From: Yponomeuta sedellus
Taxonomy: Eukaryota > Arthropoda > Insecta > Lepidoptera > Yponomeutidae
Assembly (NCBI GenBank): GCA_934045075.1
Contig: OW203724.1
Location: 546,001 to 610,000, forward strand
Reading direction: 5' to 3'
Length of the DNA stretch: 64,000 nucleotides
The notes beneath the pieces were generated by a model, which was not told where the DNA came from, did not search any database, and worked only from the letters and a program-made list of their open reading frames with translations. Positions 1-62,606 of the stretch are shown piece by piece. How positions within the stretch are numbered: position 1 is the stretch's first letter; each line of letters opens with the position of its first letter. A program made the position numbers and the translations under genes.

Positions 1-409
1 TTCGTTTCGTTTCGTTTCGTTTCGTTTCGTTTCGTTTCGTTTCGTTTCGTTTCGTTTCGTTTCGTTTCGTTTCGTTTCGTTTCGTTTCGTTTCGTTTCGT
101 TTCGTTTCGTTTCGTTTCGTTTCGTTTCGTTTCGTTTCGTTTCGTTTCGTTTCGTTTCGTTTCGTTTCGTTTCGTTTCGTTTCGTTTCGTTTCGTTTCGT
201 TTCGTTTCGTTTCGTTTCGTTTCGTTTCGTTTCGTTTCGTTTCGTTTCGTTTCGTTTCGTTTCGTTTCGTTTCGTTTCGTTTCGTTTCGTTTCGTATCGT
301 TTCGTTTCGTTTCGTTTCTTTTAGTTTCGTTTCGTTTCGTTTCGTTACGTTTCGTTTCGTTTCGTTTCGTTTCGTTTCGTTTCGTTTCGGTTCGTTTCGT
401 TTCGTTTCA
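1..409. repeat. TTCGT pentanucleotide array
   Basis: An almost pure array of the 5-bp unit TTCGT runs from the window edge to about position 409, with a few substitutions after position 295. It decays into TTTTA-rich sequence. It is cut by the window start, so its full length is unknown. Confidence 0.97.
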
Positions 410-619
410 TTTTATTTTATTTTAACTTAACTTAAAATTAGTATTAAGGTTAGTTACATGTATAACCAGCAGCATTTTCTTCAGTTTACAATATAAAAAT
501 ATTAGAATACAATAGGCACAGTGTGAGAAATGCATGCAATAGTTGGGTAATAAGTCAGATAATGTGCCCATAACCACGTCATCAATAAAATATATGCTTT
601 TAAAAAATCTTACACTATT

Positions 620-18400: not shown

Positions 18401-21400
18401 CAGTCAGTCAGTCAGTCAGTCAGTCAGTCAGTCAGTCAGTCAGTCAGTCAGTCAGTCAGTCAGTCAGTCAGTCAGTCAGTCAGTCAGTCAGTCAGTCAGT
18501 CAGTCAGTCAGTCAGTCAGTCAGTCAGTCAGTCAGTCAGTCAGTCAGTCAGTCAGTCAGTCAGTCAGTCAGTCAGTCAGTCAGTCAGTCAGTCAGTCAGT
18601 CAGTCAGTCAGTCAGTCAGTCAGTCAGTCAGTCAGTCAGTCAGTCAGTCAGTCAGTCAGTCAGTCAGTCAGTCAGTCAGTCAGTCAGTCAGTCAGTCAGT
18701 CAGTCAGTCAGTCAGTCAGTCAGTCAGTCAGTCAGTCAGTCAGTCAGTCAGTCAGTCAGTCAGTCAGTCAGTCAGTCAGTCAGTCAGTCAGTCAGTCAGT
18801 CAGTCAGTCAGTCAGTCAGTCAGTCAGTCAGTCAGTCAGTCAGTCAGTCAGTCAGTCAGTCAGTCAGTCAGTCAGTCAGTCAGTCAGTCAGTCAGTCAGT
18901 CAGTCAGTCAGTCAGTCAGTCAGTCAGTCAGTCAGTCAGTCAGTCAGTCAGTCAGTCAGTCAGTCAGTCAGTCAGTCAGTCAGTCAGTCAGTCAGTCAGT
19001 CAGTCAGTCAGTCAGTCAGTCAGTCAGTCAGTCAGTCAGTCAGTCAGTCAGTCAGTCAGTCAGTCAGTCAGTCAGTCAGTCAGTCAGTCAGTCAGTCAGT
19101 CAGTCAGTCAGTCAGTCAGTCAGTCAGTCAGTCAGTCAGTCAGTCAGTCAGTCAGTCAGTCAGTCAGTCAGTCAGTCAGTCAGTCAGTCAGTCAGTCAGT
19201 CAGTCAGTCAGTCAGTCAGTCAGTCAGTCAGTCAGTCAGTCAGTCAGTCAGTCAGTCAGTCAGTCAGTCAGTCAGTCAGTCAGTCAGTCAGTCAGTCAGT
19301 CAGTCAGTCAGTCAGTCAGTCAGTCAGTCAGTCAGTCAGTCAGTCAGTCAGTCAGTCAGTCAGTCAGTCAGTCAGTCAGTCAGTCAGTCAGTCAGTCAGT
19401 CAGTCAGTCAGTCAGTCAGTCAGTCAGTCAGTCAGTCAGTCAGTCAGTCAGTCAGTCAGTCAGTCAGTCAGTCAGTCAGTCAGTCAGTCAGTCAGTCAGT
19501 CAGTCAGTCAGTCAGTCAGTCAGTCAGTCAGTCAGTCAGTCAGTCAGTCAGTCAGTCAGTCAGTCAGTCAGTCAGTCAGTCAGTCAGTCAGTCAGTCAGT
19601 CAGTCAGTCAGTCAGTCAGTCAGTCAGTCAGTCAGTCAGTCAGTCAGTCAGTCAGTCAGTCAGTCAGTCAGTCAGTCAGTCAGTCAGTCAGTCAGTCAGT
19701 CAGTCAGTCAGTCAGTCAGTCAGTCAGTCAGTCAGTCAGTCAGTCAGTCAGTCAGTCAGTCAGTCAGTCAGTCAGTCAGTCAGTCAGTCAGTCAGTCAGT
19801 CAGTCAGTCAGTCAGTCAGTCAGTCAGTCAGTCAGTCAGTCAGTCAGTCAGTCAGTCAGTCAGTCAGTCAGTCAGTCAGTCAGTCAGTCAGTCAGTCAGT
19901 CAGTCAGTCAGTCAGTCAGTCAGTCAGTCAGTCAGTCAGTCAGTCAGTCAGTCAGTCAGTCAGTCAGTCAGTCAGTCAGTCAGTCAGTCAGTCAGTCAGT
20001 CAGTCAGTCAGTCAGTCAGTCAGTCAGTCAGTCAGTCAGTCAGTCAGTCAGTCAGTCAGTCAGTCAGTCAGTCAGTCAGTCAGTCAGTCAGTCAGTCAGT
20101 CAGTCAGTCAGTCAGTCAGTCAGTCAGTCAGTCAGTCAGTCAGTCAGTCAGTCAGTCAGTCAGTCAGTCAGTCAGTCAGTCAGTCAGTCAGTCAGTCAGT
20201 CAGTCAGTCAGTCAGTCAGTCAGTCAGTCAGTCAGTCAGTCAGTCAGTCAGTCAGTCAGTCAGTCAGTCAGTCAGTCAGTCAGTCAGTCAGTCAGTCAGT
20301 CAGTCAGTCAGTCAGTCAGTCAGTCAGTCAGTCAGTCAGTCAGTCAGTCAGTCAGTCAGTCAGTCAGTCAGTCAGTCAGTCAGTCAGTCAGTCAGTCAGT
20401 CAGTCAGTCAGTCAGTCAGTCAGTCAGTCAGTCAGTCAGTCAGTCAGTCAGTCAGTCAGTCAGTCAGTCAGTCAGTCAGTCAGTCAGTCAGTCAGTCAGT
20501 CAGTCAGTCAGTCAGTCAGTCAGTCAGTCAGTCAGTCAGTCAGTCAGTCAGTCAGTCAGTCAGTCAGTCAGTCAGTCAGTCAGTCAGTCAGTCAGTCAGT
20601 CAGTCAGTCAGTCAGTCAGTCAGTCAGTCAGTCAGTCAGTCAGTCAGTCAGTCAGTCAGTCAGTCAGTCAGTCAGTCAGTCAGTCAGTCAGTCAGTCAGT
20701 CAGTCAGTCAGTCAGTCAGTCAGTCAGTCAGTCAGTCAGTCAGTCAGTCAGTCAGTCAGTCAGTCAGTCAGTCAGTCAGTCAGTCAGTCAGTCAGTCAGT
20801 CAGTCAGTCAGTCAGTCAGTCAGTCAGTCAGTCAGTCAGTCAGTCAGTCAGTCAGTCAGTCAGTCAGTCAGTCAGTCAGTCAGTCAGTCAGTCAGTCAGT
20901 CAGTCAGTCAGTCAGTCAGTCAGTCAGTCAGTCAGTCAGTCAGTCAGTCAGTCAGTCAGTCAGTCAGTCAGTCAGTCAGTCAGTCAGTCAGTCAGTCAGT
21001 CAGTCAGTCAGTCAGTCAGTCAGTCAGTCAGTCAGTCAGTCAGTCAGTCAGTCAGTCAGTCAGTCAGTCAGTCAGTCAGTCAGTCAGTCAGTCAGTCAGT
21101 CAGTCAGTCAGTCAGTCAGTCAGTCAGTCAGTCAGTCAGTCAGTCAGTCAGTCAGTCAGTCAGTCAGTCAGTCAGTCAGTCAGTCAGTCAGTCAGTCAGT
21201 CAGTCAGTCAGTCAGTCAGTCAGTCAGTCAGTCAGTCAGTCAGTCAGTCAGTCAGTCAGTCAGTCAGTCAGTCAGTCAGTCAGTCAGTCAGTCAGTCAGT
21301 CAGTCAGTCAGTCAGTCAGTCAGTCAGTCAGTCAGTCAGTCAGTCAGTCAGTCAGTCAGTCAGTCAGTCAGTCAGTCAGTCAGTCAGTCAGTCAGTCAGT

Positions 21401-24400
21401 CAGTCAGTCAGTCAGTCAGTCAGTCAGTCAGTCAGTCAGTCAGTCAGTCAGTCAGTCAGTCAGTCAGTCAGTCAGTCAGTCAGTCAGTCAGTCAGTCAGT
21501 CAGTCAGTCAGTCAGTCAGTCAGTCAGTCAGTCAGTCAGTCAGTCAGTCAGTCAGTCAGTCAGTCAGTCAGTCAGTCAGTCAGTCAGTCAGTCAGTCAGT
21601 TAGTTAGTTAGACCTGAGATTTCCGCACTTAGCCTCATGGTTGGGTCATTGTACGTAGCAAGCGCTGAGGTACGCTAACACCTCAAGACACTAGGGTTTC
21701 CTTACGATGTTTTCCTTCACGGTCAGCGAGTAGTATTGCTACTATAATTTCACAAATGTACATAACTTTGAAAACAAAGTCATTGGTTAATGCCGGGTTC
21801 GAACCTACGACCTCTCGATCGAGAAGCCGGAGTTCTACACCGCTCCGCTACCACCGCTCTCAATTCAATAGGTAAGACCACTCTACTATGTGCAGCTAAG
21901 CTGGGGTCTTCGCAGTACTGCTATGTAGCTGTTTTTACCCTTGTTGAATTTTTACCGTATCGAAGGCACAGTATAAATAAAGATAGGAAGAAATCTCCGG
22001 GAAAGTCTCTAAATTCTCAAAAAATTATAACTCGAAATTTATCAATAATCGCTGAACATACATGGGGGTGTTTTCGAAGGTCACGGTACGGGCCACAGAA
22101 CATAAAAAAAGAGTAGAAGTAGCGACATGACACATTAGTACGAAAACCAGTGTAACCACAGAACATAAAAAAAGAGTAGAAGTAGCGACATGACACATTA
22201 GTACGAAAACCAGTGTAACCAAACTGATACTTACAAACCAAACGCACACCACAAATGCCAACCTGCCATTGGTAAATAAAGTCAATGCCAAAAAGGCGTA
22301 CATCATAAAAGTTTCAATTAAAATATGCACCTTTTTGTAATGTTAACAATGATCAAAGTCAAATGACAATGATGAAATTAAGGTTGACATTTTGTAGTAA
22401 CGCTACTGTACACTAGATGGAACTACCGCCGCGTCGGACCGAAAAGAACTTTTACCTAGTAAGACAGAAAGTTCAAAATTGAAAAACAAGTACATTCTCA
22501 GTTTGGGATGGGACAATGCGAGTTCTAGTTTGTCGATAGGGAGAACCTATCGACAAATTATACTCATACAAACAGTTTACACATTAACGGCCGAATATGA
22601 ATACTGGTACTTAGAAGTATTTTTATCTATTTCTTTTTTGCCTGCGGGTTGACTGGTAGAAAATGCATCTTTTCTACATTATCTTTTGTGCAATATAGTA
22701 TATTTCATTACAAGTGCGGAAAGGCTGTCATTGCAAAGAGTTCCGACAAGTTGCAATGACGGTTCCGCACGTGTACTGAACGACTATTTTTAATACAGTT
22801 ACGAAAAAAATAAGCAATTTAATAAAGAAAATAATTTAGAAAATGGCGCCAACCGTAAAAAAATATAAGCAGAGATTTTTTTTCTTCACCCATTTTAGAA
22901 GGCAAAAGGAACTGTTTCCATACAGCCAAGTCTTCAGAAGAATTTTTTTATTTATATGAAATGAAAATGAAATTTAGTGAGATTAAATGAAATGAAACCA
23001 TTCAATCAAATCATTAAATCTGATATTGAAACAAATTAGTAGCTCATAAAAACTTCTATGATTTTTTTTAGTAAAAACTTCATGGTTGGTTTTTCTTTTT
23101 AAAAGATATTATTTTGACAGTTGGGAAAGAAAACGCACGATTGCGGGAAAGGTAAAAAAAAAACACGATTGTGTAATAGCCCACATCCCGCGTGCTATAC
23201 TTCCGTGTAATACGTCACTTTTTGAGCAACAGTATTAAAAAAGAATTAACACTAATAGGGTACATAGACGCACTAATAAACCAATGTTGTAGATTTCATA
23301 TTTTAAAATGTTATCTCTTATTTAAAACGAGCTTTAACCCGCTGCTTCGCGGGCGTTTGAAATTATAACACGGGAAATATAATGTATTCTACGACTCAAT
23401 TCAGATCTTTGTCTGTCTGTACGACATGTTTCATACGTTATACTAATTTTATTGACGATGGTACTAATATATTTCATTTATACGCAAGAGTCTAACCTGG
23501 AAGTGAAGCACATTTTTTCTGGTATTGCTGCATCACATAATTGCCACCTTCCGCCATTTTTAGTGTTTATGAAGTGTTTTCATATATTGTGTTCATCGTC
23601 GGTTTGAACCAATATATTGTGTTCATCGTCGGTTTGAACCAATTTTGACTTCCTGTTGCTGCCATCCATTTTAATTTCGTAGGTATCCGGTTCCTTAGAA
23701 AACTAAACGAAAACTCACTTCCAAATTGTTTGATTCCGAGAGGCCAGTTGTAACAGTGCCTCGGTTTTCTGTTGTCAAAGGGGTAAGATGAAAATTACTT
23801 CGATAGTTTCTTAGATATTTCAGTCACTGATAAACTGGTGAAGAAAATCTATATCGCGATCTATGTCTCATGTCATATCTTGTATGAAAAGTAGTAATGT
23901 ATGAGCTCCGATGACAGTTTTCACATGCACAACGACCAGCCGGCGACCGGAGCTCATACATTACTACTTTACCCGGCCCGGCGACCGGACGGCGACCGGG
24001 TGCATGTGAAAAGGCACTTAGGAAGTAGGTATAAAATAACAACAATAATTTTACCTACTTAGACGAATTGTAATTTACGATACCTAAGTACCATTAAGTA
24101 TGTAGGACTACTAAGTCATAAACAATTATCGATAGATTTTTATCATGTGTGCCCCCATCCGTAATTGAGTAGAATTCAAATTATGACAGAAATTTCTAGA
24201 GAAGGTACGCTTTCTTCGATGAAAATTTAACTTTACTAACCAGTAAATAAAGGTGGTTTCACTTTTTCATTTTCGGATTGGTTTCCGTGCTCATGTCATT
24301 ACAAATTTAATTAAAATACAATGAAACACGTCTTACCGATGAAATATTACGGCATGATCGGTATATTTTAGTGCCCAGCTTTTACTTTTGCTCTCTAACA

Positions 24401-27400
24401 CAGCACAACAAGGCATTTTAATCGTGTTTTCACCATTTTTTTCTTTACTAGAAGCTCACGGCAACTGAAGTAAACAAAACTGTCACCGACTACGCATAGG
24501 CAATACATTGCTAATGTGAGGCACGCGGGCACCGCCCACTTACGACTTCTACTCTTTTTTTATGTTCTGTGAGTGTAACCAAACTGATACTTACAAACCA
24601 AACGCACACCACAAATGCCAACCTGCCATTGGTAAATAAAGTCAATGCCGAAAAGGTGTAACATCATAAAAGTTTCAATTAAAATATGCACCTTTTTGTA
24701 ATGTTAACAATGATCAAAGTCAAATGACAATGATGAAATTAAGGTTGACATTTTGTAGTAACGCTACTGTACACTAGATGGAACTACCGCCGCGTCGGAC
24801 CGAAAAGAACTTTTACCTAGTAAGACAGAAAGTTCAAAATTGAAAAACAAGTACATTCTCAGTTTGGGATGGGACAATGCGAGTTCTAGTTTGTCGATAG
24901 GGAGAACCTATCGACAAATTATACTCATACAAACAGTTTACACATTAACGGCCGAATATGAATACTGGTACTTAGAAGTATTTTTATCTATTTCTTTTTT
25001 GCCTGCGGGTTGACTGGTAGAAAATGCATCTTTTCTACATTATCTTTTGTGCAATATAGTATATTTCATTACAAGTGCGGAAAGGCTGTCATTGCAAAGA
25101 GTTCCGACAAGTTGCAATGACGGTTCCGCACGTGTACTGAACGACTATTTTTAATACAGTTACGAAAAAAATAAGCAATTTAATAAAGAAAATAATTTAG
25201 AAAATGGCGCCAACCGTAAAAAAATATAAGCAGAGATTTTTTTTCTTCACCCATTTTAGAAGGCAAAAGGAACTGTTTCCATACAGCCAAGTCTTCAGAA
25301 GAATTTTTTTATTGATATGAAATGAAAATGAAATTTAATGAGATGAAATGAAATGAAACCTAACTTAACTCATTCAATCAAATCATTAAATCTGATATTG
25401 AAACAAATTAGTAGCTCATTAAAACTTCTATGATTTTTTTTAGTAAAAACTTCATGGTTGGTTTTTCTTTTTAATAGACATTATTTTGACAGTTGGGAAA
25501 GAAAACGCACGAGTGCGGGAAAGGTAAAAAAAAGCACGAGTGTTTAATAGCCCACATCCCGCATGCTATACGTCCGTGTAATACGCCACTTTTTGAGCAA
25601 CTATATTAAAAAAGAATTAACACTAATAGGGTACATAGACGCACAAAGAAAACAATGTTGTAGATTTCATATTTTAAAATGTTATCTCTTATATAAAACT
25701 AGCTTCAACCCGCTGCTTCGCGGGCGTTAGAAATTATAAAACGGGAAATATAATGTATTCTACGACTCAATTCAGATCTTTGTCTATCTGTACGCCATGT
25801 TTCATACGATAATACTGATTTTATTGACGATGGTACTAATATATTTTATTTATACACAAGAGTCTAACCTGGAAGTGAAGCACATTTTTTCTGGTATTGC
25901 TGCATCACATAAGTGGCACCTTCCGCCATTTTTTGTGTTTATAAAGTGTTCATGAAAATGCTTAGAATATATTGTGTTCATTTTGCCTTCCTGTCGCTGC
26001 CATCCATTTTAATTTCGTATCCGGTTCCTTAGAAAACTAAACGAAAACTCACTTCCAAATTGTTTTGATTCCGAGAGGGTTGTTGTAACATTGCCTCGGT
26101 TTTCTGTTGTCAAAGGTGTGAGATGAAAATTACTTCGATAGTTTCTTAGATATTTCAGTCACAGATAAACTGGTGAAGAAAAACTATATCGCGATATACA
26201 GGGTGTGTCGTAAATAATGGATAACCCTGTAGCTGCTGACTGGCCATATAATCATCTATTACATGTCCCACTTTTATCGTCATTTGGCCATGAATTTATG
26301 AAATATATATATTTTTTTATATTCAAAAGAAATATTGCTATTTTTACAAAATTGGCTACCATTTCCACAAATAAAGAGGTTTTTTGGTTCTGTTTTCTGT
26401 TTCTAATTTCTGAATATCTGTACTATTACTTGAATTAGAATAAAATAAGATAGTATTAACAATTATTTAAGAATAAATAGTTTTTTTCCTAATTTCAAGG
26501 TCATTTCTGCCGGACTATGTAACTTTGACTGAATTTTCTTAAAAAAAAATGTATGGCACTCAATTGGCCCATTATTTTAAAAAGTTGTCCACTTCATACA
26601 GATTATAACATGGTGTCATAGTAAAAGGTACCTTGTCGCAAGACAGAGTTATTACAATTTATCCAGAAAATGGGCTAAAATTAAAAGTTACGTGTATTAA
26701 ATTTTAACGTTTTAAAATCGTTGTGAATTGCTTGTGATTAAACCTTACGAAATAAAATGTTATCTAATTTTAAAAAGGGCCTTTTAAAAGTGTATGAATA
26801 ATGAAACAAGTGTTATTTTTCTAATTTTGATTAAACTAAATTTTCAAAATGGGCTCCATTTGCTGCGATGCATGCTCTACACCTTCTTATGAAAGATCGT
26901 TTAAGGCGTCGTGCGTATCTCTCCTGATTGATTTCTTCAGCAGCGTTGCGTATGCGTTTCCGTAATTGCTCCACCGTAGTAATTTCGTCTTTGTAAACTT
27001 TTTCTTTTAAACAGCCCCAGTAAAAAAAGTCCAGTGGATTTAGATCCGGTGAGCGAGGAGGCCACAATATTGGCCCCAGGCGCCCTATCCATCTTCCTGG
27101 ATAGGTGTCGTGTTGCCTCACACTCACAGCATAGTGAGCAGGACACCCGTCGTTTTGCAGCCACATGTTGTCTCGGACTTCAGGAACCACGTATTGCATT
27201 AGCTCAGGCAAATTATTTTGCAAAAAATTTAAATGATTATCTGCATTCAGGACAGCGGGCAGCTCAAAAGGACCAATTATTTGTCCTCCTATGATTCCAG
27301 TCCAGAGATTAATCTTAAATTGATATTGGGATCGGTCTTGGCGTATCAAATTGGGATTTTCTAACTGCCAGCTGTGTAGATTATGCATGTTTAAATAGCC

Positions 27401-30400
27401 ATATTTTCTGCATGTTGATTCATCACTCCAAAGAATTTTATCATAAAATTGTGGATCTTCTCTTATTCTTCGCAGCATTGTTCGGCAGAAGTTGACACGT
27501 AAAGGGTAGTCTCTCGGAAGCAATGTTTGTACCCGTTGATAATGGCATGGGTATAATTCGTGGCGTTGCAGCATACGATGTACAGTTCGGGTAGACATAC
27601 CAGTACGGGAATGCCAAGTCGTCGGTAATATCACTATTCAACTGTCCAATTCACTGAGAAAATCAGGGTCCAGGTAAATTAAGCAAAGTCGTCAAGTTCA
27701 CACAATAATCGAATCCAGTTCACAAGCAAATCGGAGTCCAGTAGAAAAAGTAGCAGATTGCGAGTTAAATAGGAAAGATACGGCGAGCAAAGACACATGT
27801 AACTACGTAAGAGAACAACTCAACTAAAGCTACATTTCACCGCTTCTTGCGCCCATCCAAACAAAGGACATAACCTTTCTTTTTTACTCTTATGAATACG
27901 GTGTCATTTAAAGTAGCCTATTTTTTTCTATCTATGGCCTTGAAGTACAATACAATTGACCATTTTGGGATCATAATTCCAAGAAAGCGACCCACAAGTC
28001 GATGGGGTAGCGTTTTTTTACTTGAACTACTGTTAATAATACATTTCATTACGATTAATCATCGTTTTGTTACTCAAAATTGTAAGTATTGTAACTTTAG
28101 ATAATTTGCAAAATCGACGTTTTATCATGTAATTAGTAATAACTCTGTATTGCGTCAAGGCACCTCTTACTATGACACCATTTTAGAATCTGTATGAAGT
28201 GGACAACTTTTTAAAATAATGGGCCACTTGAGTGCCATACATTTTTTTTAAGAAAATTGAGTCAAAGTTACATAATCCGGCAGAAATGATCTTGAAAATT
28301 AGGAAAAAACTATTTATTCTTAAATAATTGTTAATACTATCTTATTTTATTCTAATTCAAGTAATAGTACAGATATTCAGGAATTAGAAACAGAAAACAG
28401 AACCAAAAAACCTCTTTATTTGTGGATATGGTAGCCAATTTTGTAAAAATAGCAATATTTCTTTTGAAAATTAAAAAAAAATCATATTTAAAAAATGCAT
28501 GGCCAAATGACGATAAAAGTGGGATATGTAATAGATGATTATGTGGCCAGTCAGCAGCTACAGGGTTATCCATTATTTACGACACACGCTGTATGTGCTC
28601 ATGTCATATTTTGTATGAAAAGTAGTAATGTATGAGCTCCAATGACAGTTTTCACATGCAGAACGACCAGCCGGCGACCGGAGCTCATACATTACTACTT
28701 TACCCGGCCCGGCGACCGGACGGCGACCTGGTGCATGTGAAAAGGCACTTAGGAAGTAGGTATAAAATAACAACAATAATTTTACCTACTTAGACGAATT
28801 GTAATTTACGATACCTAAGTACCATTAAGTATGTAGGACTACTAAGTCATAAACAATTATCGATAGATTTTTATCATGTGTGCCCCCATCCGTAATTGAG
28901 TAGAATTCAAATTATGACAGAAATTTCTAGAGAAGGTACACTTTCTTCGATGAAAATTTAACTTTACTAACCAGTAAATAAAGGTGGTTTCACTTTTTCA
29001 TTTTCGGATTGGTTTCCGTGCTCATGTCATTACAAATTTAATTAAAATACAATGAAACACGTCTTACCGATGAAATATTACGGCATGATCGGTATATTTT
29101 AGTGCCCAGCTTTTACTTTTGCTCTCTAACACAGCACAACAAGGCATTTTAATCGTGTTTTCACCATTTTTTTCTTTACTAGAAGCTCACGGCAACTGAA
29201 GTAAACAAAACTGTCACCGACTACGCATAGGCAATACATTGCTAATGTGAGGCACGCGGGCACCGCCCACTTACGACTTCTACTCTTTTTTTATGTTCTG
29301 TGGTACGGGCTATCTAAAAAAAATAACGTCACCCGATTGGCCACATTCTGTAAATAGAATGTAACTTGGTGGCTCAATTGGTAGAGCGCTGGCACGGATA
29401 GCCAGAGGTTGCGGGTTCGAATCCCGGCATGGGTGAAAATTTTTAGCCTCTAAATAGGTTTTTAAAGAATGTAACTTGTATCATCATCATCGTAATCAAC
29501 CAACCGACATAGACATCCCCAGACACGCCACTTCTGCACTTCTCTTCCAGTCACTGCCCACAGCTTAAATTATATAGGTACGCTGAAATAAATTATTGAT
29601 TTCCGATAATTTTTTTAACATATTTTAAACTTTCGCAATTTGTACACGTAGTTAGAATATTTTCGGGGCTTAATCGCGTAGTAGTGGTTGAAATTAAGAA
29701 ACACAAAAATTTTAATCGGGAATGTAGTTTCAAACTGTCGCAAACGTGGGATCCGGTCATCAAGATGTGTTCGAGTGGGAAAAAGTAGCATGGCTTATCG
29801 TCCGACATTGCTGTCAGTGTAGTGTGTCGCAACCCTAATAGTGCTTTGTGATAGATTGTGCTGATTGAGGGTAGTCTGAAACCTCATCAGCCGAAGATGC
29901 GAACGGGTCTTCTCGTGACTCCGATGACTGTAACGTCGTCGAAACGTCGAGGTAAAATAGCAATAAGCCCCGAAAATATTCTGATTTCACTTTTTTTCAC
30001 TTAGAGTTCCATGGTAAGCCAACAACTATTACAATAACGATGATGATGCCTTCCATGCCGATTTCGGCAACGGCGACCAATTCTGTTTTGTGTTACTGGT
30101 GCGTCCTCACATGACTAATGTAACCAATTTTTGCAGTAAACGTCCGAAGACAGGTGCCACATTACATATAATCAATAACATATAATCTTATATAGGGAAA
30201 CGTAAAGCCAATTACAGGTTCACCCTTTCTCACACGTTCAAACATTGTCTATTCCTTATTGTAATTTGACCAGGAAGAACGTTAGTGACTCAAACAGTAA
30301 TGCCACTGTTAATGTGCCGGCTGATCGACCTTTGCTTTGGCTTTGACGACCTCTGTGGCGTAGCGGTAGCGCGTCTGCCTACCATGCAAGAGGTCCTGGG

Positions 30401-33400
30401 TTCGAATCCCGGCTGGAAACAAAAAAAGAAGTCCAGGTCTTGGATGTTTACATGTTTGTGATGTCGTCGTTTCTGGCTCCCACGTCACAGGGTATCCTAG
30501 TGTGGGGCCAGAAGCAATGTATGTGCTATAGGAAATTCAGGTTAGGAGCTGAATAGAAACCACTGAGATAGTTTAAACGAAACAAATAATTATTTATTCT
30601 TACGACACTGGAAAGCCATATCGACTGATTCCTAGCACTGACAGACTTTGACTGACCGAAACGAGATGGCGTTGAAATCACGTTGTTAAACTCGATTATT
30701 TAGTAATCGATTTAAGATTAATTTTTGTAAATAAAATTACATAAAATCAACATGTGCCTGTGTGTAACAAAAAAAATGCCACTGTTAATGTGCCGGCTGA
30801 TCCAGATCGCGCCGTACACGTCGGTGCTGGTGAACTGCATCTACTGGGCCGTGGACAGCCCCAAGCTGCTGACCATCCCCGACGCCAAGCACCTGCTGCT
30901 GCCGCCGCACACGCCCTGGCTGCCCAAGAGCGTGGGCGCGCCGGCCCTGCCGCACAGGTGCCGGCTCCAGCCTCTAAACTATATGGAGTTCTTTCGATTC
31001 GCATTAGACTAATACCCAAAATAGATAATATTGGCCTCTTGCATCCACTTAATGAGATGATTTATACAGCATCCAGTGGTATCTATCTCCGACGCTGTAG
31101 TGCCTGGGACATGGTTTTTTATAGACGGTGTAGGCTTGCCCAGCACCTATACCATCCTGACAGCTTAGTCGGCCTAGCCCACAGGAAAGACTAGTCAATA
31201 CGTGCGGAGCCAACCAAGCCGCGGGTTTCCTCGCGATGTTTTCCTTCACCGTTAGTGTGTGGTATTGCGACTACAAATAGAATACACCTAGGGTTATTTT
31301 AAATAGATACACCTAGGGTTATTTTAGCTTATTCTGTTATTCCCGAGGATGTTTTAGCTAAAATGTTCTAGGTTATTCCTTACGATTACACTCTGACGAA
31401 GTTACGTGGCAGGCGCCTTTTGAAAGCGCCGCCTGCTATATTTTCACAGTAATAAAACATTTATCCCATTGAATTGTACCAAACTGTTTAGGCAGTTTAT
31501 TTGTACATTCCTCTCTAAATTTACCTTCTGACCACCTGTTGCCTTCATATCGCCGCGGCGAGCGCACGATTATGAACTTATCTGCTTTTAGCGGCATTGC
31601 CGACCTTCAACGCTTATACGGTTTGGCTGCAATAAATATTTGGAGTCGGTGCCCGAAATGTGCTGGTCGTGCTGCTTCCCATCATAGTTTTACGAAATCG
31701 GTTTTTGTTTAAAATGTTTGGCACACTATCGCCTCAATGTTCCCAGGATGCTGGCGATCTGCGACATCTCAGCTGACCCGGGCGGCTCCATCGAGTTCAT
31801 GAACGAGTGCACAACCATCGACACACCATTCTGCCTCTATGACGCCGACCGCAATAAGGATACTAAGAGGTATTTATACTATCAGGTGTCCTCCGACCCG
31901 GTGGGATGACGACCTGCGAAAAACTGCAGGCAGATGCTGGATGCGGCAAGCTGAAGACAGGGCGCTATGGCGCTCATTAGGGGAGGGCTATGTCCAGCAG
32001 TGGACTAGTATAGCCTGACGATGAAGATGATTAATATTACAAAATAAAAACTATAATAAATATTAATTTTCTAACATTAAATGTAAATATGGATTGAATG
32101 TTTGAGATAAATTAATTGAGTGGAATTGATTTAACGTACGGTGCCCCACAAATAACTACTAATAACTAGCACAAATGACTTTGCTTAAAAAAATCGTTTA
32201 CGTATCATTCAGAAGCGCTCGTGGCCTAGGTGAACCGAGTGATTGGAGTCAATCACTTGCGTTAAGCAACAACAGGTGTGGGATGGGTAACCATCCCGTG
32301 ACTACCGCTAGTGGCATTTCTTCCGAGCGCTTCCGTGCTTCGCAAGGCACGCTAAGCCGTTGGCGCCGGCTGTCGACCTCTGTGACGTAGCGGTAGCGCA
32401 TCTACCGGAAACAACGACATCACAAACATGTAACCATCCAAGACCTGGGTTTTTTTGTCCCCAGTCGGGGTTCGAACCCGGGGCCTCTCGCACGGTAGGC
32501 TGAGGTGCTACCGCTACGCCACAGAGATCGTCAAGCAGGTCTCGATATCGATCGAGACCTGTTGACTAGGCTCGCTACGCAGGTCAGTTTCTCATGTAGA
32601 GACGGACCTGGTGCCGTGTCAGTTCTGAGTGCTTAGTGCGAGTTTGACGAATCCAATCGAATAACTTTACTACCGCGTTAATTGAGCATTGAGTAGTGAG
32701 TATGAGTAAGTTAACCGTTCGAACTGGCAAAACGCTGTCACAGTACAACTCGCACTCGCGTTTACTCGTGTTTTGGCTGGTAAACGTGTTCACTTATCAA
32801 CGTAAACCATTACAACTCGCACTCAGCAATTTTAATTTCCATACTTGTCGCTAGGTGGCGCTTCCTCGATGCCATAGAAATATGACTTTACGTTAACGCG
32901 ATCGAGTAGTTAAAAAACTCGCACTAAGCACTCTGGGTGTGCCGGTGATCCTCGTTGATAAGCTAAGCAGGGCGAGTGTAGGACTGAGTGGTGTGCGCAG
33001 CTTCAAGGGAGTGTAGGACTGAGTGGTGTGCGCAGCTTCAAGGGAGTGTAGGACTGAGTGGTGTGCGCAGCTTCAAGGGAGTGTAGGACTGAGTGGTGTG
33101 CGCAGCTTCAAGGGAGTGTAGGACTGAGTGGTGTGCGCAGCTTCAAGGGAGTGTAGGACTGAGTGGTGTGCGCAGCTTCAAGGGAGTGTAGGACTGAGTG
33201 GTGTGCGCAGCTTCAAGGGAGTGTAGGACTGAGTGGTGTGCGCAGCTTCAAGGGAGTGTAGGACTGAGTGGTGTGCGCAGCTTCAAGGGAGTGCAGGACT
33301 GAGTGGTGTGCGCAGCTTCAAGGGAGTGTAGGACTGAGTGGTGTGCGCAGCTTCAAGGGAGTGTACGACTGAGTGGTGTGCGCAGCTTCAAGGGAGTGTA

Positions 33401-36400
33401 GGACTGAGTGGTGTGCGCAGCTTCAAGGGAGTGTAGGACTGAGTGGTGTGCGCAGCTTCAAGGGAGTGTAGGACTGAGTGGTGTGCGCAGCTTCAAGGGA
33501 GTGTAGGACTGAGTGGTGTGCGCAGCTTCAAGGGAGTGTAGGACTGAGTGGTGTGCGCAGCTTCAAGGGAGTGTAGGACTGAGTGGTGTGCGCAGCTTCA
33601 AGGGAGTGTACGACTGAGTGGTGTGCGCAGCTTCAAGGGAGTGTAGGACTGAGTGGTGTGCGCAGCTTCAAGGGAGTGTAGGACTGAGTGGTGTGCGCAG
33701 CTTCAAGGGAGTGTACGACTGAGTGGTGTGCGCAGCTTCAAGGGAGTGTAGGACTGAGTGGTGTGCGCAGCTTCAAGGGAGTGTAGGACTGAGTGGTGTG
33801 CGCAGCTTCAAGGGAGTGTAGGACTGAGTGGTGTGCGCAGCTTCAAGGGAGTGTAGGACTGAGTGGTGTGCGCAGCTTCAAGGGAGTGTAGGACTGAGTG
33901 GTGTGCGCAGCTTCAAGGGAGTGTAGGACTGAGTGGTGTGCGCAGCTTCAAGGGAGTGTACGACTGAGTGGTGTGCGCAGCTTCAAGGGAGTGTAGGACT
34001 GAGTGGTGTGCGCAGCTTCAAGGGAGTGTAGGACTGAGTGGTGTGCGCAGCTTCAAGGGAGTGTAGGACTGAGTGGTGTGCGCAGCTTCAAGGGAGTGTA
34101 GGACTGAGTGGTGTGCGCAGCTTCAAGGGAGTGTAGGACTGAGTGGTGTGCGCAGCTTCAAGGGAGTGTAGGACTGAGTGGTGTGCGCAGCTTCAAGGGA
34201 GTGTACGACTGAGTGGTGTGCGCAGCTTCAAGGGAGTGTAGGACTGAGTGGTGTGCGCAGCTTCAAGGGAGTGTAGGACTGAGTGGTGTGCGCAGCTTCA
34301 AGGGAGTGTAGGACTGAGTGGTGTGCGCAGCTTCAAGGGAGTGTAGGACTGAGTGGTGTGCGCAGCTTCAAGGGAGTGTAGGACTGAGTGGTGTGCGCAG
34401 CTTCAAGGGAGTGTAGGACTGAGTGGTGTGCGCAGCTTCAAGGGAGTGTAGGACTGAGTGGTGTGCGCAGCTTCAAGGGAGTGTAGGACTGAGTGGTGTG
34501 CGCAGCTTCAAGGGAGTGTAGGACTGAGTGGTGTGCGCAGCTTCAAGGGAGTGTAGGACTGAGTGGTGTGCGCAGCTTCAAGGGAGTGTAGGACTGAGTG
34601 GTGTGCGCAGCTTCAAGGGCCCCGGCGTGCTGGTGTGCTCCATCGACAACATGCCGACGCAGCTGCCGCGCGAGTCGACGGACTTCTTCGGCGACCTGCT
34701 GCTGCCGTACTCCGCCGACATCCTGCGCTCCGACGCCACCAAGCCGCTCGAGGATCACGACTTCTCGCCCGTCGTCAAGGGGGTGAGAGCTGAAATGGAA
34801 TGAAAAAGTTTTATTCAAAGTAGCACAGAAACTGCGGCTTAATGAACGTTACAATTCAAACTAGGTTTCCAAAATCTTTTCAAAATCTAGATCATTTTGG
34901 AGAATAAATGGACAAAAAAACTCCAAACTTCAGGATGTTAGTTTCTTTAAATAAATCCCTTAACGAATCTCTACTGCCCAGCCTATAAATGAATCTTAGC
35001 TCTCTTCTGCAAGACGAAGATGGTCTCAATGTCTGCTGCCCGTCCCCACAGTCGTATGCCATAAAACATAAGACTATGGAAGTAACTAAAATAAACAAGC
35101 CTTGCGACGTCAGTAAGTTCTTTAATTCTTTTGACTGCATATGCCGCTAAACTAAGCCTATTTGCCAATTTTTCTATTCTCGTGACTCCTGCACGTTCCA
35201 CCGGCGTAGCCATATTGTGACTCGATGATGTCTGGAATTCAAGACAGTACAATGCATAATTCCCATGTTTTATAAGAATGAAAATGGACACCTAGTTTGA
35301 CTTGTAACGTTAATTAAGCCGCAGTTTCTGCGTTACTTTGAAAAACTTTTTCATTTCATTTCAATTTTGTTACCTACTTTTGAACCCCTTTTGTAACTTT
35401 TGGTGACACAGCTTAATTTGTCACTTTTTGAAGTACGTGCCTGTCTGTGACTAATTGTATTAAAATTCATTCAACTTGTATTTTTTTTACACTTTCCTTT
35501 TAATCTTTCAAGTTCGTGTTAAATTTGCCGAGGGTTCGAATATGATTTACGGTAACTTTCAAGTGGTTGCATCAAAGAGAAAATATTTGGAAAAAAACTG
35601 TAAGTTTTCAATGAATTTTACTTTACTATAGAGTAAAATCAAACAGAAAGCACAAAATTATAAAATAAAAAAAATTTCATGGCGAGCTTATTTCATTGAA
35701 AATCTCTCCTAGCCGACCCTTACTGTGGTAATACGGGGCAAGAGTACAATCATTATTTTATTAATGTTACACAATCAATTCTGTGACTTTTTGGTTTTGC
35801 TCGTGTATCTTTTGACTGTATCATTTCTCACAACAGAAATGATGATGCTGGTACACCTAAAGATTTTCATTCTCATACTTTCTTGCATTTTCACTTTCTA
35901 AAATATTCCAAATAATTTTATCTCTTCGGAAAGCTCTTCGCTTACTTTTTTACTCTAGGACAGCTTCTAAATTTAACAGCTCATGCCTACATTTTGGTGT
36001 ATGTCGTTGACAGCGATAGCTCGTTGTTAAGATAAATCTTTAGTAAAGAATTTTTACTATTAACTAGCTGACCCAGCGAACTTTCTTTTTTTTTCTCTCC
36101 GTAAGAACCATCCTCGCACTTCAAGGAATATTCTAAAAAATGAATTCGCGAAATCGGTTCAGCTGCTCTCGAGATTTGCGCTTACCAACACATTCAGCGA
36201 TTCATTTTTATATTATAGATTATTGATAGCACATCAGATAATGTACATAAGAAATACTTAATGCTAATGACTTTGTTCGTGACTTCGGTGTACCTAATCC
36301 TGATAGCAACAGTTCAATAAAAACTACACATTTCAGAAAAGGTTAAGTCTTTTATTTTAGATCAGATCCCGACTGTTTTTATACGTGTATGCGGTCGTAA

Positions 36401-42400: not shown

Positions 42401-45295
42401 AAAATTAGAATCCTGAGCGTTAGCGAGGGAATCAAAAGAGCACAAGGTGAAAAATATTTGCACTCGAGTGCAACACGTAACTTTTCATTCCACCTCAGCG
42501 AGGAAATGACTAAATGCAAAAAAAAACGTTTACAATCACAAGATAGGTACATTTTTTTAATTCACAAACTTAGTGCACACGATGTTCTAAATTCAATTTA
42601 CTTTATCCTCTAGAAAATAAAAACGGCTTTTCCACTCAGATATTGAAGATTAAAAATACTCCTTCCGAGATGGTGGGATGACAAAGAATTTTATTGCCTC
42701 ATCAAAAACAACTTAAACAAAGTAAGACTTAAAACTTGATATTATAAAATAAGGCAAAAGGTTCAGCTGGTGCTGACCCGGATCAGCCCCGGACAGCGCT
42801 GGTTTTCAGCCACTGCCTTCTCCCTGAGATGTTGTACGGGAGTAATGTAAAGAGGGCTGTATCAATTAGGTAAATAACCACTAATAGAAGACCAATTAAA
42901 AACTAACGAAACAAAACATCTGTTAAAATATGAGATCAAAATAAAAAAAAAACAATTTTTCTTCTTATATAAAAGGAAGTTACTAAAATTTTTTTTATTA
43001 AAAATAATTTATATAAAACAAAAAAAAGTATGTACGTGAATGGCACTATTATGACAATCAACAATGTAGGGTGTATTTATGTGTGTGTTGTGTGTGTTTA
43101 TGTATGTGTGCGTGTGTATATTGTCATGGACTATGTAAACGGCTAGAGTTTATTTTTTAGGATTTAAAATATTTTTTAAGGGACAAATCTTTAGACCAAG
43201 CACGCCTCAAATTTTCGGTAGCAAGCTGTCTTTGGAGCAGTGCTGATTTATATTTATTTTTGAATACTTGGACATATTTAGTTAAAGGCTCGTTTACGCC
43301 GAGGCAACAACGTGCGACAACGCCGCATGCTACATATTGTGGCGTGCGGCACCTTGACGCATGCTACAGTTTGCGGCATATGTGGCATACGGCAGCCTAT
43401 ATTACGCCGAGGCAACATCGTGCCTAGATAATTTCCAAAGCATCGTGATGTTTATGGAGTGTTTCTGGTTTACCTGCTTGTTTGATCGAAGGGATAAACC
43501 ATAGAATATGGCTAATCAAGTAACTTTAGCAGCTGCTTATTTAGTACTAAGCCATGTAGCTAAACAACAAAAGAAGAAACGTTTGGTGGAAAGAAGATTA
43601 CTTTAGAATGGCCCACGTACTAGTTTACTAACAAAAATTAAAGCAGACGATGGTGCCTTATTTAAAAACTTTATATACCAGAATGTCAATGTCGCACGAA
43701 AAATGTCCCATGGAATCCATAGTGCCTGGATACAAGCTGCGACAGTCTGCCACATGACGCAAGGTGTTGCCATGCCGCACGGCTCTTGCAACAATGTGCG
43801 ACATTTTTAATTTTGTAGCATGCGGCCTTGTGGTATGCCGCAATGCCGCATAGTGTTGCCCCGGTGTAATATAGCTTTAACGCTGAATGGTGACGAATGT
43901 CGCTTCTCGACCGGGGCTGAGCGGCGAGCACGCGGCGACGGCCTCTCGGCGACGGGTGTCGCTTTTTATTAAACGGAGAGCTGAGCGCGCACGCGATGAC
44001 GGCCTCCTACGTCACGCCTCGAGTGCGGGAGTTGCACGACAGGTCACCGCTTTTCCTATATTGAAAAAGTACCTCGTAAGCTAAAACCATTAAATTAATT
44101 CAATGCTAAAACCATTTCAAATTCAATGCTAAAACTAATGTTCGAACTTACCTTCTTAAGCACCACACATTATCAGCTCGATTCCGCATTCACTTACTTA
44201 AGCAAGTAAGTGAATCCGGAATTCAGTTAATAAACTTAATGTTTATTACCATATTATATAATATTAACTGTTGTCTATTGCATAGAGTTGATGGACATAG
44301 AGAATTGCTTCATTATGGCGCAGGGGGTTAATGAAATGCCCACAATCTTGCTGGAAGGCTCACCACTGGATGTTGTCGATAATTTCTGCTATCTTGGGTC
44401 CACAGTCTCGAACAATCTTTGCCTCAACGCTGAAATAAACAGCCGCATCGGCAAGGCCTCTACGATCTTCGGGAAGCTGAGCGCAAGAGTATGGTACAAC
44501 AAATATCGCACTGTAAAGACCAAGATGATTATTTATCAGACCTGCATCTTGTCCATACTCTTATATGGCGCAGAGACCTGGACATCGTATGCCAAACAGG
44601 AGCGGAAATTAAACAACTTTCATATGCGCTGTCTCAGGCGTATATTGGATATTTCTTGGAAGGATCGAGTAACAAACGAGAAGGTGCTTAGTATCGCGTG
44701 CATGCCTAGCATAACCGCACTACTTAAACAAAGAAGATTGCGCTGACTGGGGCATGTGCAACGGATGGAGCCTTCTCGTTTGCCAAGATTAACTCTCCTT
44801 GGTCAAATTTCGGACGCTAAACGTCCAGTTGGGCGGCCACTACTGCGGTTTAAAGATAGCGTTAAACGCGATCTGGTGTCTTTTAACATTGCCCCGAACA
44901 CCTGGGAAAAAGTTTCTGGTGACCGTGATAGTTGGAGGAAAAGATTATCTGATGGGGTAGTCGCGCATGACAATGCCTGGTTCGATCTGCTCTCCCAAAA
45001 GCGCCATCGACGTCACCAACGAATGGCACAACCTCTAACGTCACCGGGAACACAATTTGTTTGCGGACGTTGCGACCGGCGTTGTCGCTCTCGTATAGGC
45101 CTTGTTAGCCATCAGCGCAAGTGCCAAAAGCAAGTATCTAACTGACGCGGTTGCTGTTTAAATCATCTTTCGTAGATGTTAAAGGCCACTGATGATGATG
45201 ATGATTGCATAGAGTGTAGGTACTCCAAAAATCACGCATAAACCTCCCACGTTTTTGTGATTTTGCTTTGTTTAATTTCATTACACTTATGTGCC

Positions 45296-45327
<32 letters not shown>

Positions 45328-48300
45328 AAAAATACACGTTTTGGTTCACGAAGAATAACAATGAATGTCACTTTTTTGGGAGCCGCTTTCCCAAATTACG
45401 TTTTGATCGACACGGAGTGGCGACCGGTGACGCTTTTCGAACGGGGCTGAGCGTGCACGTGCGGTGACGTCGACGGCCTCCTAACGACGGGTGTCGCTTT
45501 TTAGTCCACAAGGAGCTGAGCGCGCACGCGGTGCCGGTCTCCTGCGCCACGCCTGAAGTGCAGGAGTTGCACGACGAAGACCGCTTTCCAAACGCCTTTT
45601 GAACCACACTAAATGGCACATCTCAATATAACCCCCTGGGTTGTAATATTTTCACTTTTAATAGTTTTTTCATCCCACCATCTCGGAAAGAGTATTTTTA
45701 ATCTTCAATATCTGAGTGGAAAAGCCGTTTTTATTCTCTAGAGGATAAAGTAAATTGAATTTAGAACATCGTGTGCACTAAGAATTAAAAAAGTGTACCT
45801 AACTTGTGATTGTAAACGTTTTTTTTTTGCATTTAGTCATTTCCTCGCTGAGGTGGAATGAAAAGTTACGTGTTGCACTCGAGTGCAAAGATTTTTCACC
45901 TCGTGCTCTTTTGATTCCCTCGCTAACGCTCAGGATTCTAATTTTGAATCCTTCACTTGCTCGGTCATCAAAATTGAACACGCGGTTAAAAAGCAACTTT
46001 GCACTCTTGTATAACAAATAACTATTAATTGCAACGGCCCTATAGTCTAATTTCGTAATAATAGACCTACTGATATTCGAAGATCGGAGCCGGCGTCGCA
46101 TCGAACTTATTTAAAAATGGAACCTAATTAAAAATAGTTTTTTTTTCTAAAATCGAGCGGGCCACGACGCAAGCTGAATGAAATACCTACATTTGAAAGT
46201 AAACAAAAGCCGCAAGTATTGTAAAACGCTGCAATAATATACGTAGGTATTATCTGCAAAGGTTCTGTAAATACTTCTTTTTTAATTTTCACTTTAAATT
46301 TAAATTTACTATAATGAAACCCGGTTTTTAGTAGCCTTGCTTTTTTATTGTCCCACAAAAGGTGAGAAAAGTAGAGTACACTCCTCGGGGATAAAGCTAT
46401 TTTTGTCTTGGGCGCGCTTGGGGTTCACTATTCAGGACTCGTCTTACTGCGCTCAGGACTCCTCGCTGCGCTCGGGAGTTAAATCAGGAGTCCTTTCTTT
46501 CCGTTCAGGATTGAATATCGCACCCGTGACATAAAACAGTGCTTTATCCCCTCGGTGCATAATCTACTATTAAATAAAGATTTACGACCTTGTGAAAGTA
46601 GCTGTAAATTTTTAGCCTCTAAATAGGTTTTTAAAATTGTCCTTAGCACGGGTTAGTGCATTAAAAATAATATAATCATGTGGATACAGCTATATCATTC
46701 CGATGTAAAGCCTAACTGCAAAGTAGGTACGCGGGGCTGCAAGTGATGCAAATTGCTTCAGCCAGATGTCGCTGCCTGTACGTAATACAGAGAATAGTGT
46801 AAAGAGGTTCGAAATTTTACTGATGCCGGTGAGTCGCCCATTAGCTCAGTTGGTAAGAGCGCTGGCACGGATGGCCAGAGGTCGCGGGTTCGAATCCCGG
46901 CATGGGTGGAATTTTTAGCCTCTAAATAGGTTTTTAAAAGCTGTAAATAACTTAAATAATTTTGCCCAACAGTGCCAAGGAAGCCGGCCTAACGTTCTTG
47001 AACGAGGTGGGTCTGGACCCCGGCATTGATCACCTGCTGGCGCTGGAGTGCATCCACGACGTCCAGAACCACGGAGGTCGCATCGACTCCTTCGTGTCCT
47101 ACTGCGGTGGTAAGCAATCTGAAGGAAACTGTTTTCAAATGACAGCCCAAAAAAAAAGAGTGGTACGTTGTCAGGGCTAATTTAAGGATGGCTGTTTGGC
47201 CGTTTCTCTGTTCCACTTATAATTCAGCCTATATACGTGGGGCACAGGACTTTGTTGGAGAAAGAATATTTCGCTATAACTTATTATAATGCTAACTATG
47301 CCCCGCTGTGTTTAGCGATATTCCCATGAGAATAAGATATTTTCCTGCAGTAAAACGTAGCTTATACCTAAGCCAAATTCGAAAACGAATGGCGATAAAC
47401 AAACCGTTGCTAGGCAACGACTTGTTTACACCTAAAAGACAGATGTTAACAACCTTACCTAGAAATCGTTTCCATACAAATAATAATCGTTCCTCCTACT
47501 AATGTAAAATGCTTATTTATGTTTATGATTTTATAATGGAAGGCTTAACCAATTTGAATAATGACATATGACAACACTGAAATATGAAATATGAAACACA
47601 GATTTAACAAACATCTACGCGAGCCATGCCGCATGATTTTCCTAATAGAATTAAGCGCGTTTAAGCAAAAAACTTACAAACTCTTCAACTCTATAATATT
47701 AATAAGTACCTATATATGCTACTATGAAAATGAGTAGATTGGGACCTACTGCAAATATTGCAATAAAAGAAAGTTATATTTTATTTTAGTATATATTTTT
47801 ATTCATATGTTCACACTAATCATCACTGTCACTGGCCAAAGAGGAGGATGAATTTGTGTCTCCGGAGACTTGAATTATAAATTCATCAATGACATTATCC
47901 ATTACACCATCAAATTCGGCGTTTTCTTTTCTTCTTTAATTACGTGTTCAACACAACGTTGTCATGCTGCTGGAGTAATTTTACTTATTGCCTCATCTAA
48001 CAAGACCTTTATTTAGTTCAGCCATTTAAAAAGTTTTATTTTTGGCAGCAACATGGCCTTTTACTTGCCCCCATATGATTTCTGTCGGATTTAATTCACA
48101 ATGATATGGGGGCAATCTATATTTTTGTCTTGTGCCATTTTGTCACACATATATGCTATATACTTATGACATATACACGTATTGACAAACGACTAAACTT
48201 CAATTGTTGGCATAAACTAAATTTCCCAAAATGTTTGTCACACCTGAATTTCATCCATGTTTCTTTTTCTGTAGGGCTGTGCGTAAAATTAATGTAATTT

Positions 48301-61469: not shown

Positions 61470-61526
61470 GTAACCGCCTCTGCTCCACAATATTAAGAAG
61501 AAGAAGGAGAAATATATTTTATCGCC

Positions 61527-62409: not shown

Positions 62410-62606
62410 ACATTTACATACAGGCACAAACATTGCTTCTGGCCCCACACTAGGATACCATGTGTTGTGGGAACCAGAAACAACGACGTCACAATCATGT
62501 AAACATCCAAGACCTGGGGTTTTTTTTCGTCCCCAGCCGGGGTTCGAACCCGGGACCTCTTGCATGGTAGGCAGGTGCGTTACCGCTGCGCCACAGAGGT
62601 CGTCAA
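62410..62606 (-). mobile_element. tRNA-derived SINE (family B)
   Basis: Minus-strand copy with GGGGTTCGAACCCGGGACCT, TACCGCTGCGCCACAGAGGT and the family body GGCCCCACACTAGGATACCA. Confidence 0.85.

What the first reader, a model, noticed from the sequence alone, without database searches (positions are those of the whole stretch)
32971..34619. A 47-copy tandem array of one splice acceptor, ending in the real exon 10 acceptor
The 35-bp unit is not random intron DNA: it straddles the intron 9/exon 10 boundary and carries CGCAG|CTTCAAGGG each time. The spliceosome meets 47 identical acceptors spaced 35 bp apart, and only the last gives an intact AASS frame. From any upstream copy the frame reads S-F-K-G-V and stops at TAG, or two codons later at TGA in the GTAC and GTGC variants. 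If upstream copies were used at any rate, the mRNA would be a premature-stop transcript. So either the machinery picks the last site, or the array tunes AASS output, and array length could vary between individuals.
Basis: partly seen in the sequence, partly recalled or inferred. Interest (0 to 1): 0.9.

Follow-up and report, generated by a model that had tools for sequence, protein, structure and literature searches.

The report
Forty-seven-copy splice-acceptor minisatellite in moth AASS
In a moth or butterfly gene for breaking down lysine, a 35-base piece that straddles the start of one exon is repeated 47 times in a row, so the splicing machinery faces 47 identical landing sites of which only the last gives the normal protein; related duplications of exon borders are known in amphioxus and in human genes.

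Summary
Window 32974-34619 is a 35-bp tandem array of 47.0 copies (41 identical, 6 with one change each) reaching 8-9 nt into coding exon 10 of a lepidopteran AASS (LKR/SDH) gene. All 47 copies carry CGCAG|CTTCAAGGG. Only the 47th (34611) yields AASS without added residues; the other 46 stop after 5-7 codons. The junction peptide DTKSFKG is the same in 28 of 28 lepidopteran relatives compared. Best reading: a young, probably length-variable minisatellite that happens to span the intron 9/exon 10 boundary, spliced mostly at its last copy by exon definition, with some leak into premature-stop mRNA. The kind is known: amphioxus 'mirages' and, on the donor side, the ABCA7 VNTR and the IFI6 minisatellite (citation). 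I found none reported from insects. Regulation by array length is possible but unsupported. No RNA, population data or sister-species DNA could be examined.

The parts
31747..31869 (+). AASS coding exon 9 (ends in codon phase 2: ...GAT ACT AAG AG)
   Evidence: tblastn of Cydia pomonella AASS, gene model
31870..31875 (+). Intron 9 donor gag|GTATTT, the lowest-scoring of the gene's 18 placed donors
   Evidence: leave-one-out PWM 0.97 against 1.88 to 11.24 for the other 17
32627..32933 (.). 307-bp stretch bounded by perfect 19-bp inverted repeats (possible small TIR element), ending 40 bp before the array
   Evidence: no target-site duplication or second copy established
32955..32967 (+). Two branch-point-like motifs just upstream of the array: TTGAT (32955-32959, fits yTnAy) and CTAAG (32963-32967); their A lies 42 and 34 nt before the first copy's acceptor. 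Possible pre-expansion branch points (inference)
   Evidence: motif scan of 32901-33001; coordinates
32974..34619 (+). 35-bp tandem array, 47.0 copies, unit GAGTGTAGGACTGAGTGGTGTGCGCAGCTTCAAGG (27 nt intron + 8 nt exon; shifted by one base, 26 + 9), each with acceptor CGCAG|CTTCAAGGG
34594..34598 (+). CTGAG, the only CTRA motif in each unit (last copy shown); A 13 nt before the acceptor's last base; candidate branch point, weak and close
34609..34611 (+). The acceptor (AG 34609-34610 | exon base 34611) that keeps the AASS frame
34611..34782 (+). AASS coding exon 10 (172 nt); its first 8-9 nt lie in the last repeat copy

Best explanation
The feature is a minisatellite grown from a 35-bp tandem duplication that took in the last 26-27 nt of intron 9 and the first 8-9 nt of exon 10 of a lepidopteran AASS gene, then multiplied to 47 copies, probably in blocks (duplication and block growth: inferred from the sequence). 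Every copy holds the same acceptor sequence (shown). Exon 10 is most likely still spliced at or near the last copy, because in an intron of 2.7 kb the acceptor is paired across the exon with exon 10's donor and exonic enhancers, and only the copies next to the exon give exons of usual size (inferred). Some transcripts use neighbouring copies (exons of 207 or 242 nt), read into a stop after 5-7 codons and are probably degraded, or yield an LKR fragment without its last segment and without SDH (inferred). The array is by default a tolerated by-product of repeat growth, and its length probably differs between individuals (inferred).
For: Array and copies. Frame of all 47 acceptors. The 909-aa model is 87% identical to Cydia pomonella AASS over 906 columns, and DTKSFKG is the same in 28 of 28 lepidopteran rows of that call, so the gene looks functional and the exon 9-10 join conserved. 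Only two distinct substitutions in 1645 bp, one of them in five copies: turnover faster than mutation (inference). Those five copies are spaced 7, 3, 7, 7 units; at least three pairs with one and the same separation arise in 2% of random draws (post hoc). Placed exons 2-19 run 74-241 nt; 1 to 5 extra units make exon 10 207, 242, 277, 312 or 347 nt. A 130-nt piece with the last three to four units folds worse than shuffles (z +1.9; 199 of 200 fold at least as well), so those sites are not hidden by structure. Amphioxus mirages that copy the acceptor side 3 or 6 times are said not to interfere with regular splicing, by RT-PCR (PMC3087553, passages). In the ABCA7 donor array the two frameshifting isoforms were 14+-6% and 2+-1%; I read the second as one-unit retention, from the order of the sentence (PMC5954066, passages).
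Against: No RNA was seen. The acceptor has the lowest pyrimidine fraction of the gene's 19 (0.35 at -20 to -4; next lowest 0.47) and intron 9 has the weakest of 18 donors. Each unit also holds rivals: tgtag|GAC scores 3.66 against 3.18 for the true acceptor (the five G->C copies lack this AG) and would shift the frame in the last copy, and gtg|GTGTGC scores 6.49 as a donor, above 9 of the 18 real donors. The only yTnAy motif found is TTGAT upstream of the array, none in the unit; scanning from there would favour the first copies. A minigene paper reports almost exclusive use of the proximal AG once two AGs stand more than about 6 nt apart (PMC2875228, passages). With 47 equal sites, 90% correct splicing needs a mean 414-fold preference for the last copy. 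In ABCA7 exon 19 skipping reached 45+-10% in one brain area, so splice-junction arrays are not always harmless.
Confidence: 0.72

Rival explanations
1. Copy-number rheostat: a steady fraction of transcripts uses upstream copies and dies as premature-stop mRNA, so array length sets AASS output and selection keeps it.
For: 46 of 47 acceptors give a stop within 5-7 codons; low pyrimidine content and a weak donor leave room for leakage; in ABCA7 a longer splice-junction VNTR goes with lower expression and more exon skipping.
Against: Selection on the array could not be tested; no conservation data. In ABCA7 exon skipping, not unit retention, followed length. Near-perfect unit identity is what recent neutral growth would give as well.
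Confidence: 0.1
2. Harmful allele: splicing to exon 10 is badly impaired and the assembled haplotype is a weak or null AASS allele at low frequency.
For: Even half-correct splicing needs a 46-fold preference; the branch-point-like motifs at 32955 and 32963 now sit 1.6 kb from the true acceptor; skipping exon 10 leads to a stop after 377 codons of the model.
Against: All 19 placed exons are intact with no internal stop, so the allele has not decayed, and amphioxus mirages are said to splice normally.
Confidence: 0.1
3. Assembly artefact: the array or its copy number was created or inflated by mis-assembly.
For: Reads were not available; one amphioxus mirage appears to be aberrantly assembled in a draft genome.
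Against: Six variant units in an ordered pattern and no Ns in the window; another very long clean array, (AGTC) about 1100 copies at 17202-21608, suggests long-read assembly (inference).
Confidence: 0.08

Closest known systems
[quoted passage not shown] Adh3, BflGb6, BflGb9)
   Same: Tandem units spanning an intron-exon boundary; in BflGb6 the 3' intron end plus the 5' exon part is copied, as here; Adh3 units of 10-72 bp bracket 35 bp; the authentic boundary is the one spliced (PMC3087553, passages read; the original Adh paper, PMC117041, is not held).
   Different: BflGb6 has 6 or 3 units of 150-160 bp, 81-100% alike; here 47 units of 35 bp, nearly identical, in an insect, without RNA or haplotype data. 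The copy number at Adh3 I did not see.
ABCA7 intron 18 VNTR (human)
   Same: 25-bp minisatellite whose unit begins with the GT of the exon 18 splice donor; about 12 to 427 copies; keeping one unit shifts the frame (PMC5954066, passages read).
   Different: Donor side, not acceptor; effects on splicing and expression were measured there.
IFI6 (6-16) minisatellite providing multiple splice donor sites
   Same: A minisatellite that supplies repeated splice sites in one gene (known to me from its title in a reference list, and recall; paper PMC306954 not held).
   Different: Donor side, human.
NAGNAG tandem acceptors
   Same: Competing AG acceptors in one intron (PMC2875228 passages; PMC1449888 seen as search listing).
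   Different: Sites a few nt apart that share one branch point; here 35 nt apart, each copy with its own upstream context.

Membership tests
Mirage (tandem duplication of an intron-exon boundary) | Repeat unit spans an exon-intron boundary | tested here: met
   Array 32974-34619 overlaps exon 10 (34611-34782); 27 nt intron + 8 nt exon per unit, or 26 + 9 if shifted by one
Mirage (tandem duplication of an intron-exon boundary) | Units carry the splice signal | tested here: met
   CGCAG|CTTCAAGGG in 47 of 47 units
Mirage (tandem duplication of an intron-exon boundary) | Regular splicing undisturbed, authentic copy used | not testable with these tools
   No RNA of this species at hand; an intact conserved gene model is indirect support only
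Mirage (tandem duplication of an intron-exon boundary) | Length instability between haplotypes | not testable with these tools
   One assembly only; the own-genome search did not complete (13 identical requests)
Minisatellite / VNTR | Head-to-tail units of 10-100 bp, high identity | tested here: met
   35 bp, 47.0 copies, 99% matches, no indels
Minisatellite / VNTR | Copy number varies between individuals | not testable with these tools
   No population data
AASS (LKR/SDH) gene, Lepidoptera | Homologous, open coding sequence | tested here: met
   19 exons, 909 aa without exon 1, no internal stop; 87% identity to Cydia pomonella, grouped with Lepidoptera at 100/100

The most novel reading that the evidence does not exclude
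The array is a heritable copy-number rheostat: each added unit is another decoy acceptor that shifts a little AASS pre-mRNA into premature-stop transcripts, so natural length alleles tune lysine breakdown, and the locus is a natural 47-site experiment on how the spliceosome chooses among identical acceptors.
Probability: 0.08. Interest if true: 0.8.

Novelty: new member of a known kind. Interest (0 to 1): 0.45.

Why it matters
Identical acceptors in near-identical 35-nt contexts remove site strength as a variable: whatever copy is used must be chosen by position (distance to exon 10's donor and enhancers, or to a branch point). Simple scanning from an upstream branch point predicts early copies; exon definition predicts the last. 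RNA reads from one moth would separate the two. It also extends exon-boundary minisatellites from amphioxus and humans to insects, with many more acceptor copies than the amphioxus globin cases (6 and 3 units).

Tried and rejected
RNA structure as the means of hiding upstream copies: rejected for the piece folded (34501-34630, three to four units of 47); 199 of 200 shuffles fold at least as well. A different true acceptor that leaves the protein unchanged: none among 292 AGs tested, and the junction peptide is conserved. The unit as a dispersed repeat: no ungapped place in the window with 13 or fewer of 35 mismatches; no exact match in the bacterial/archaeal and viral contig collections, which say little about insects. 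A same-species protein, or one ending SFKGV: two protein searches showed no hit above 78% or 93% identity among the 120 rows listed in each (6680 and 1354 hits in all); I did not inspect the ends of the listed proteins. Branch point: no yTnAy match in the unit, only CTGAG; left open. Literature: ten searches were answered, seven of them on repeated or duplicated splice sites; by titles and openings of abstracts none is about an acceptor minisatellite in insects. The library holds open-licence papers only. (PMC12480690, passages) was used only for the citation of Reed and Maniatis 1986, a paper I did not see. One search (PMC12177298, passages) gave plant examples of intronic repeats that affect splicing.

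Weak points: the splice-site matrices rest on 17 or 18 sites of one gene; exon 1 was not found and the start of exon 2 is a choice; the 2% figure for the variant spacing was computed after seeing the pattern.
Full report
What is there. The array is exact and long: 32974-34619, 35-bp unit, 47.0 copies, 99% matches, no indels. Of 47 whole units 41 are identical; copies 12, 19, 22, 29 and 36 share one G->C and copy 10 has one T->C. CGCAG|CTTCAAGGG occurs in every copy, 47 times on + and 0 times on -. An ungapped scan finds no place elsewhere in the window with 13 or fewer of 35 mismatches to the unit.

The gene. Exon 10's translation matches human AASS in the PDB (8e8t, E 1.5e-17, chain residues 373-428). 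A joined query of window exons has lepidopteran AASS proteins at the top of its list. tblastn with Cydia pomonella AASS places exons along 6.7-55.6 kb. The model with checked splice sites has 19 exons (numbered 2-20) and an open 909-aa protein; exon 1 was not found. A tree of 33 rows puts the window protein inside Lepidoptera (100/100) with no supported smaller group; highest identity is 87%, to C. pomonella. DTKSFKG at the junction is present in 28 of 28 lepidopteran rows (24 named species, 4 unnamed) and in 31 of 32 relatives given to that call; the miss is Leptinotarsa, DTRSFNG.

The frame. Exons 2-9 leave two bases (AG), which the C after the acceptor completes to serine. Of the 47 acceptors only the last gives the intact protein; 40 give SFKGV-stop, 5 SFKGVYD-stop, 1 SFKGVQD-stop. 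Of 292 AGs tested between exon 9 and 34660, four others, in the last three units, give full-length protein with 4, 8, 18 or 21 extra residues. Skipping exon 10 leads to a stop after 377 codons. A product that stops at the array would lack the part of LKR that matches human chain residues 373-428 and all of SDH; that it is inactive is inference.

Strength of the sites. By a leave-one-out matrix from this gene's own sites the array acceptor ranks 11th of 19, but it has the lowest pyrimidine fraction of the 19 (0.35), and intron 9's donor is the weakest of 18. Twelve per cent of the 4312 AGs in the window score as well or better. Exon 5's acceptor is also UG-rich with few pyrimidines (0.47), so such sites occur elsewhere in this gene. 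Each standard unit also holds a second acceptor-like AG, tgtag|GAC, that scores slightly above the true one (3.66 against 3.18), and a donor-like gtg|GTGTGC (6.49) that scores above 9 of the 18 real donors. Cryptic use of these is a real possibility and counts against clean splicing. A 130-nt piece with the last three to four units is less structured than shuffles. The + strand is G-rich over the array (GC skew 0.48-0.50 in windows that lie inside it).

How it probably arose. The unit takes in 26-27 nt before and 8-9 nt after the exon start; the exact phase is ambiguous by one base. The left flank (AGCAGGGC|GAGTG) and right flank (CAAGG|GCCCC) share little with the internal junction (CAAGG|GAGTG), which fits a duplication with about one base of homology (inference). 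With two distinct substitutions in 1645 bp, one of them carried to five copies, growth or homogenisation has outrun mutation (inference). The five variant copies are spaced 7, 3, 7, 7 units, as block duplications would leave; at least three pairs with the same separation arise in 2% of random draws, a post hoc figure. Without the 46 extra units the intron would be 1131 nt instead of 2741.

How it probably works. In long introns acceptors are usually chosen together with the donor of the same exon (exon definition; established knowledge, recalled). All copies have nearly the same local context, so position must decide. Copies 46 and 45 would give exons of 207 and 242 nt, near this gene's largest placed exon (241), and copies further up larger ones; hence my expectation of the last copy with some leak to its neighbours. 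The opposite prediction comes from scanning. Upstream of the array lie TTGAT (32955), the only yTnAy match in the last 100 nt before the first acceptor, and CTAAG (32963), 42 and 34 nt before that acceptor; either may have been the branch point before the expansion (inference). Minigene work shows the proximal AG winning once AGs stand more than about 6 nt apart. Within each unit the only CTRA motif is CTGAG, 13 nt from the acceptor, which is short. If all 47 sites were equal, the correct one would get 1 in 47; 90% needs a 414-fold mean preference. This tension makes the locus testable, but no RNA was available.

What is known. [quoted passage not shown] BflGb6 copies the acceptor side 6 and 3 times in two haplotypes, Adh3 has units of 10-72 bp, the authors state that RT-PCR suggests no interference with regular splicing, and length instability, at Adh3 even somatic, was found (PMC3087553, passages). 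The ABCA7 VNTR is the donor-side counterpart, about 12 to 427 copies of 25 bp; exon 19 skipping (12+-6% in cell lines, up to 45+-10% in one brain area) rises with length, one-unit retention does not (PMC5954066, passages). The IFI6 minisatellite with multiple donors is known to me from a citation and recall. So the kind is known. The insect host, the gene and the acceptor side with 47 near-identical copies are new as far as the searches listed under Tried and rejected show.

Limits. The own-genome search did not complete in 13 tries, and no insect DNA collection was at hand. Copy number, polymorphism, splicing and sister species are therefore untested.

Noticed in passing
window 17202-21608: A 4.4-kb (AGTC)n microsatellite, about 1100 copies at 99%, begins 156 nt after exon 7 in AASS intron 7; the genome seems prone to long clean tandem growth.
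   Followed up: partly
window 51909-52380: A CCATTCACCACACACAAA-type array begins 15 nt after the end of AASS exon 18, another tandem array hugging an exon boundary of the same gene.
   Followed up: partly
window 43984-44046 and 45513-45572: Two weak matches to the end of AASS exon 13 lie in intron 13 (tblastn E 0.012 and 0.95); the first is followed by GACAGGTCACCG as at the real exon 13 donor, so it may be a duplicated exon end.
   Followed up: partly
window 32627-32933: 307-bp stretch with perfect 19-bp terminal inverted repeats, a possible small DNA element, 40 bp upstream of the array.
   Followed up: partly
window 62529-62600, 46837-46906, 51385-51453, 11633-11701, 30353-30415, 29369-29428, 4597-4668, 59467-59531: Eight tRNA-model matches (29-41 bits); two (30353-30415 and 62529-62600) lie in stretches 85-87% alike to about 32404-32534, so probably tRNA-derived SINEs.
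   Followed up: no
window 22401-22973 and 24762-25334: Open frames of the same lengths recur 2361 bp apart, which suggests a direct duplication inside intron 7.
   Followed up: no
window 1-412: (TTCGT)82 array at the left edge of the window.
   Followed up: no
window 60250-61480: GC-rich coding-like stretches that resemble BTB/Kelch-type protein sequence (recalled resemblance, no search made), perhaps the next gene downstream.
   Followed up: no
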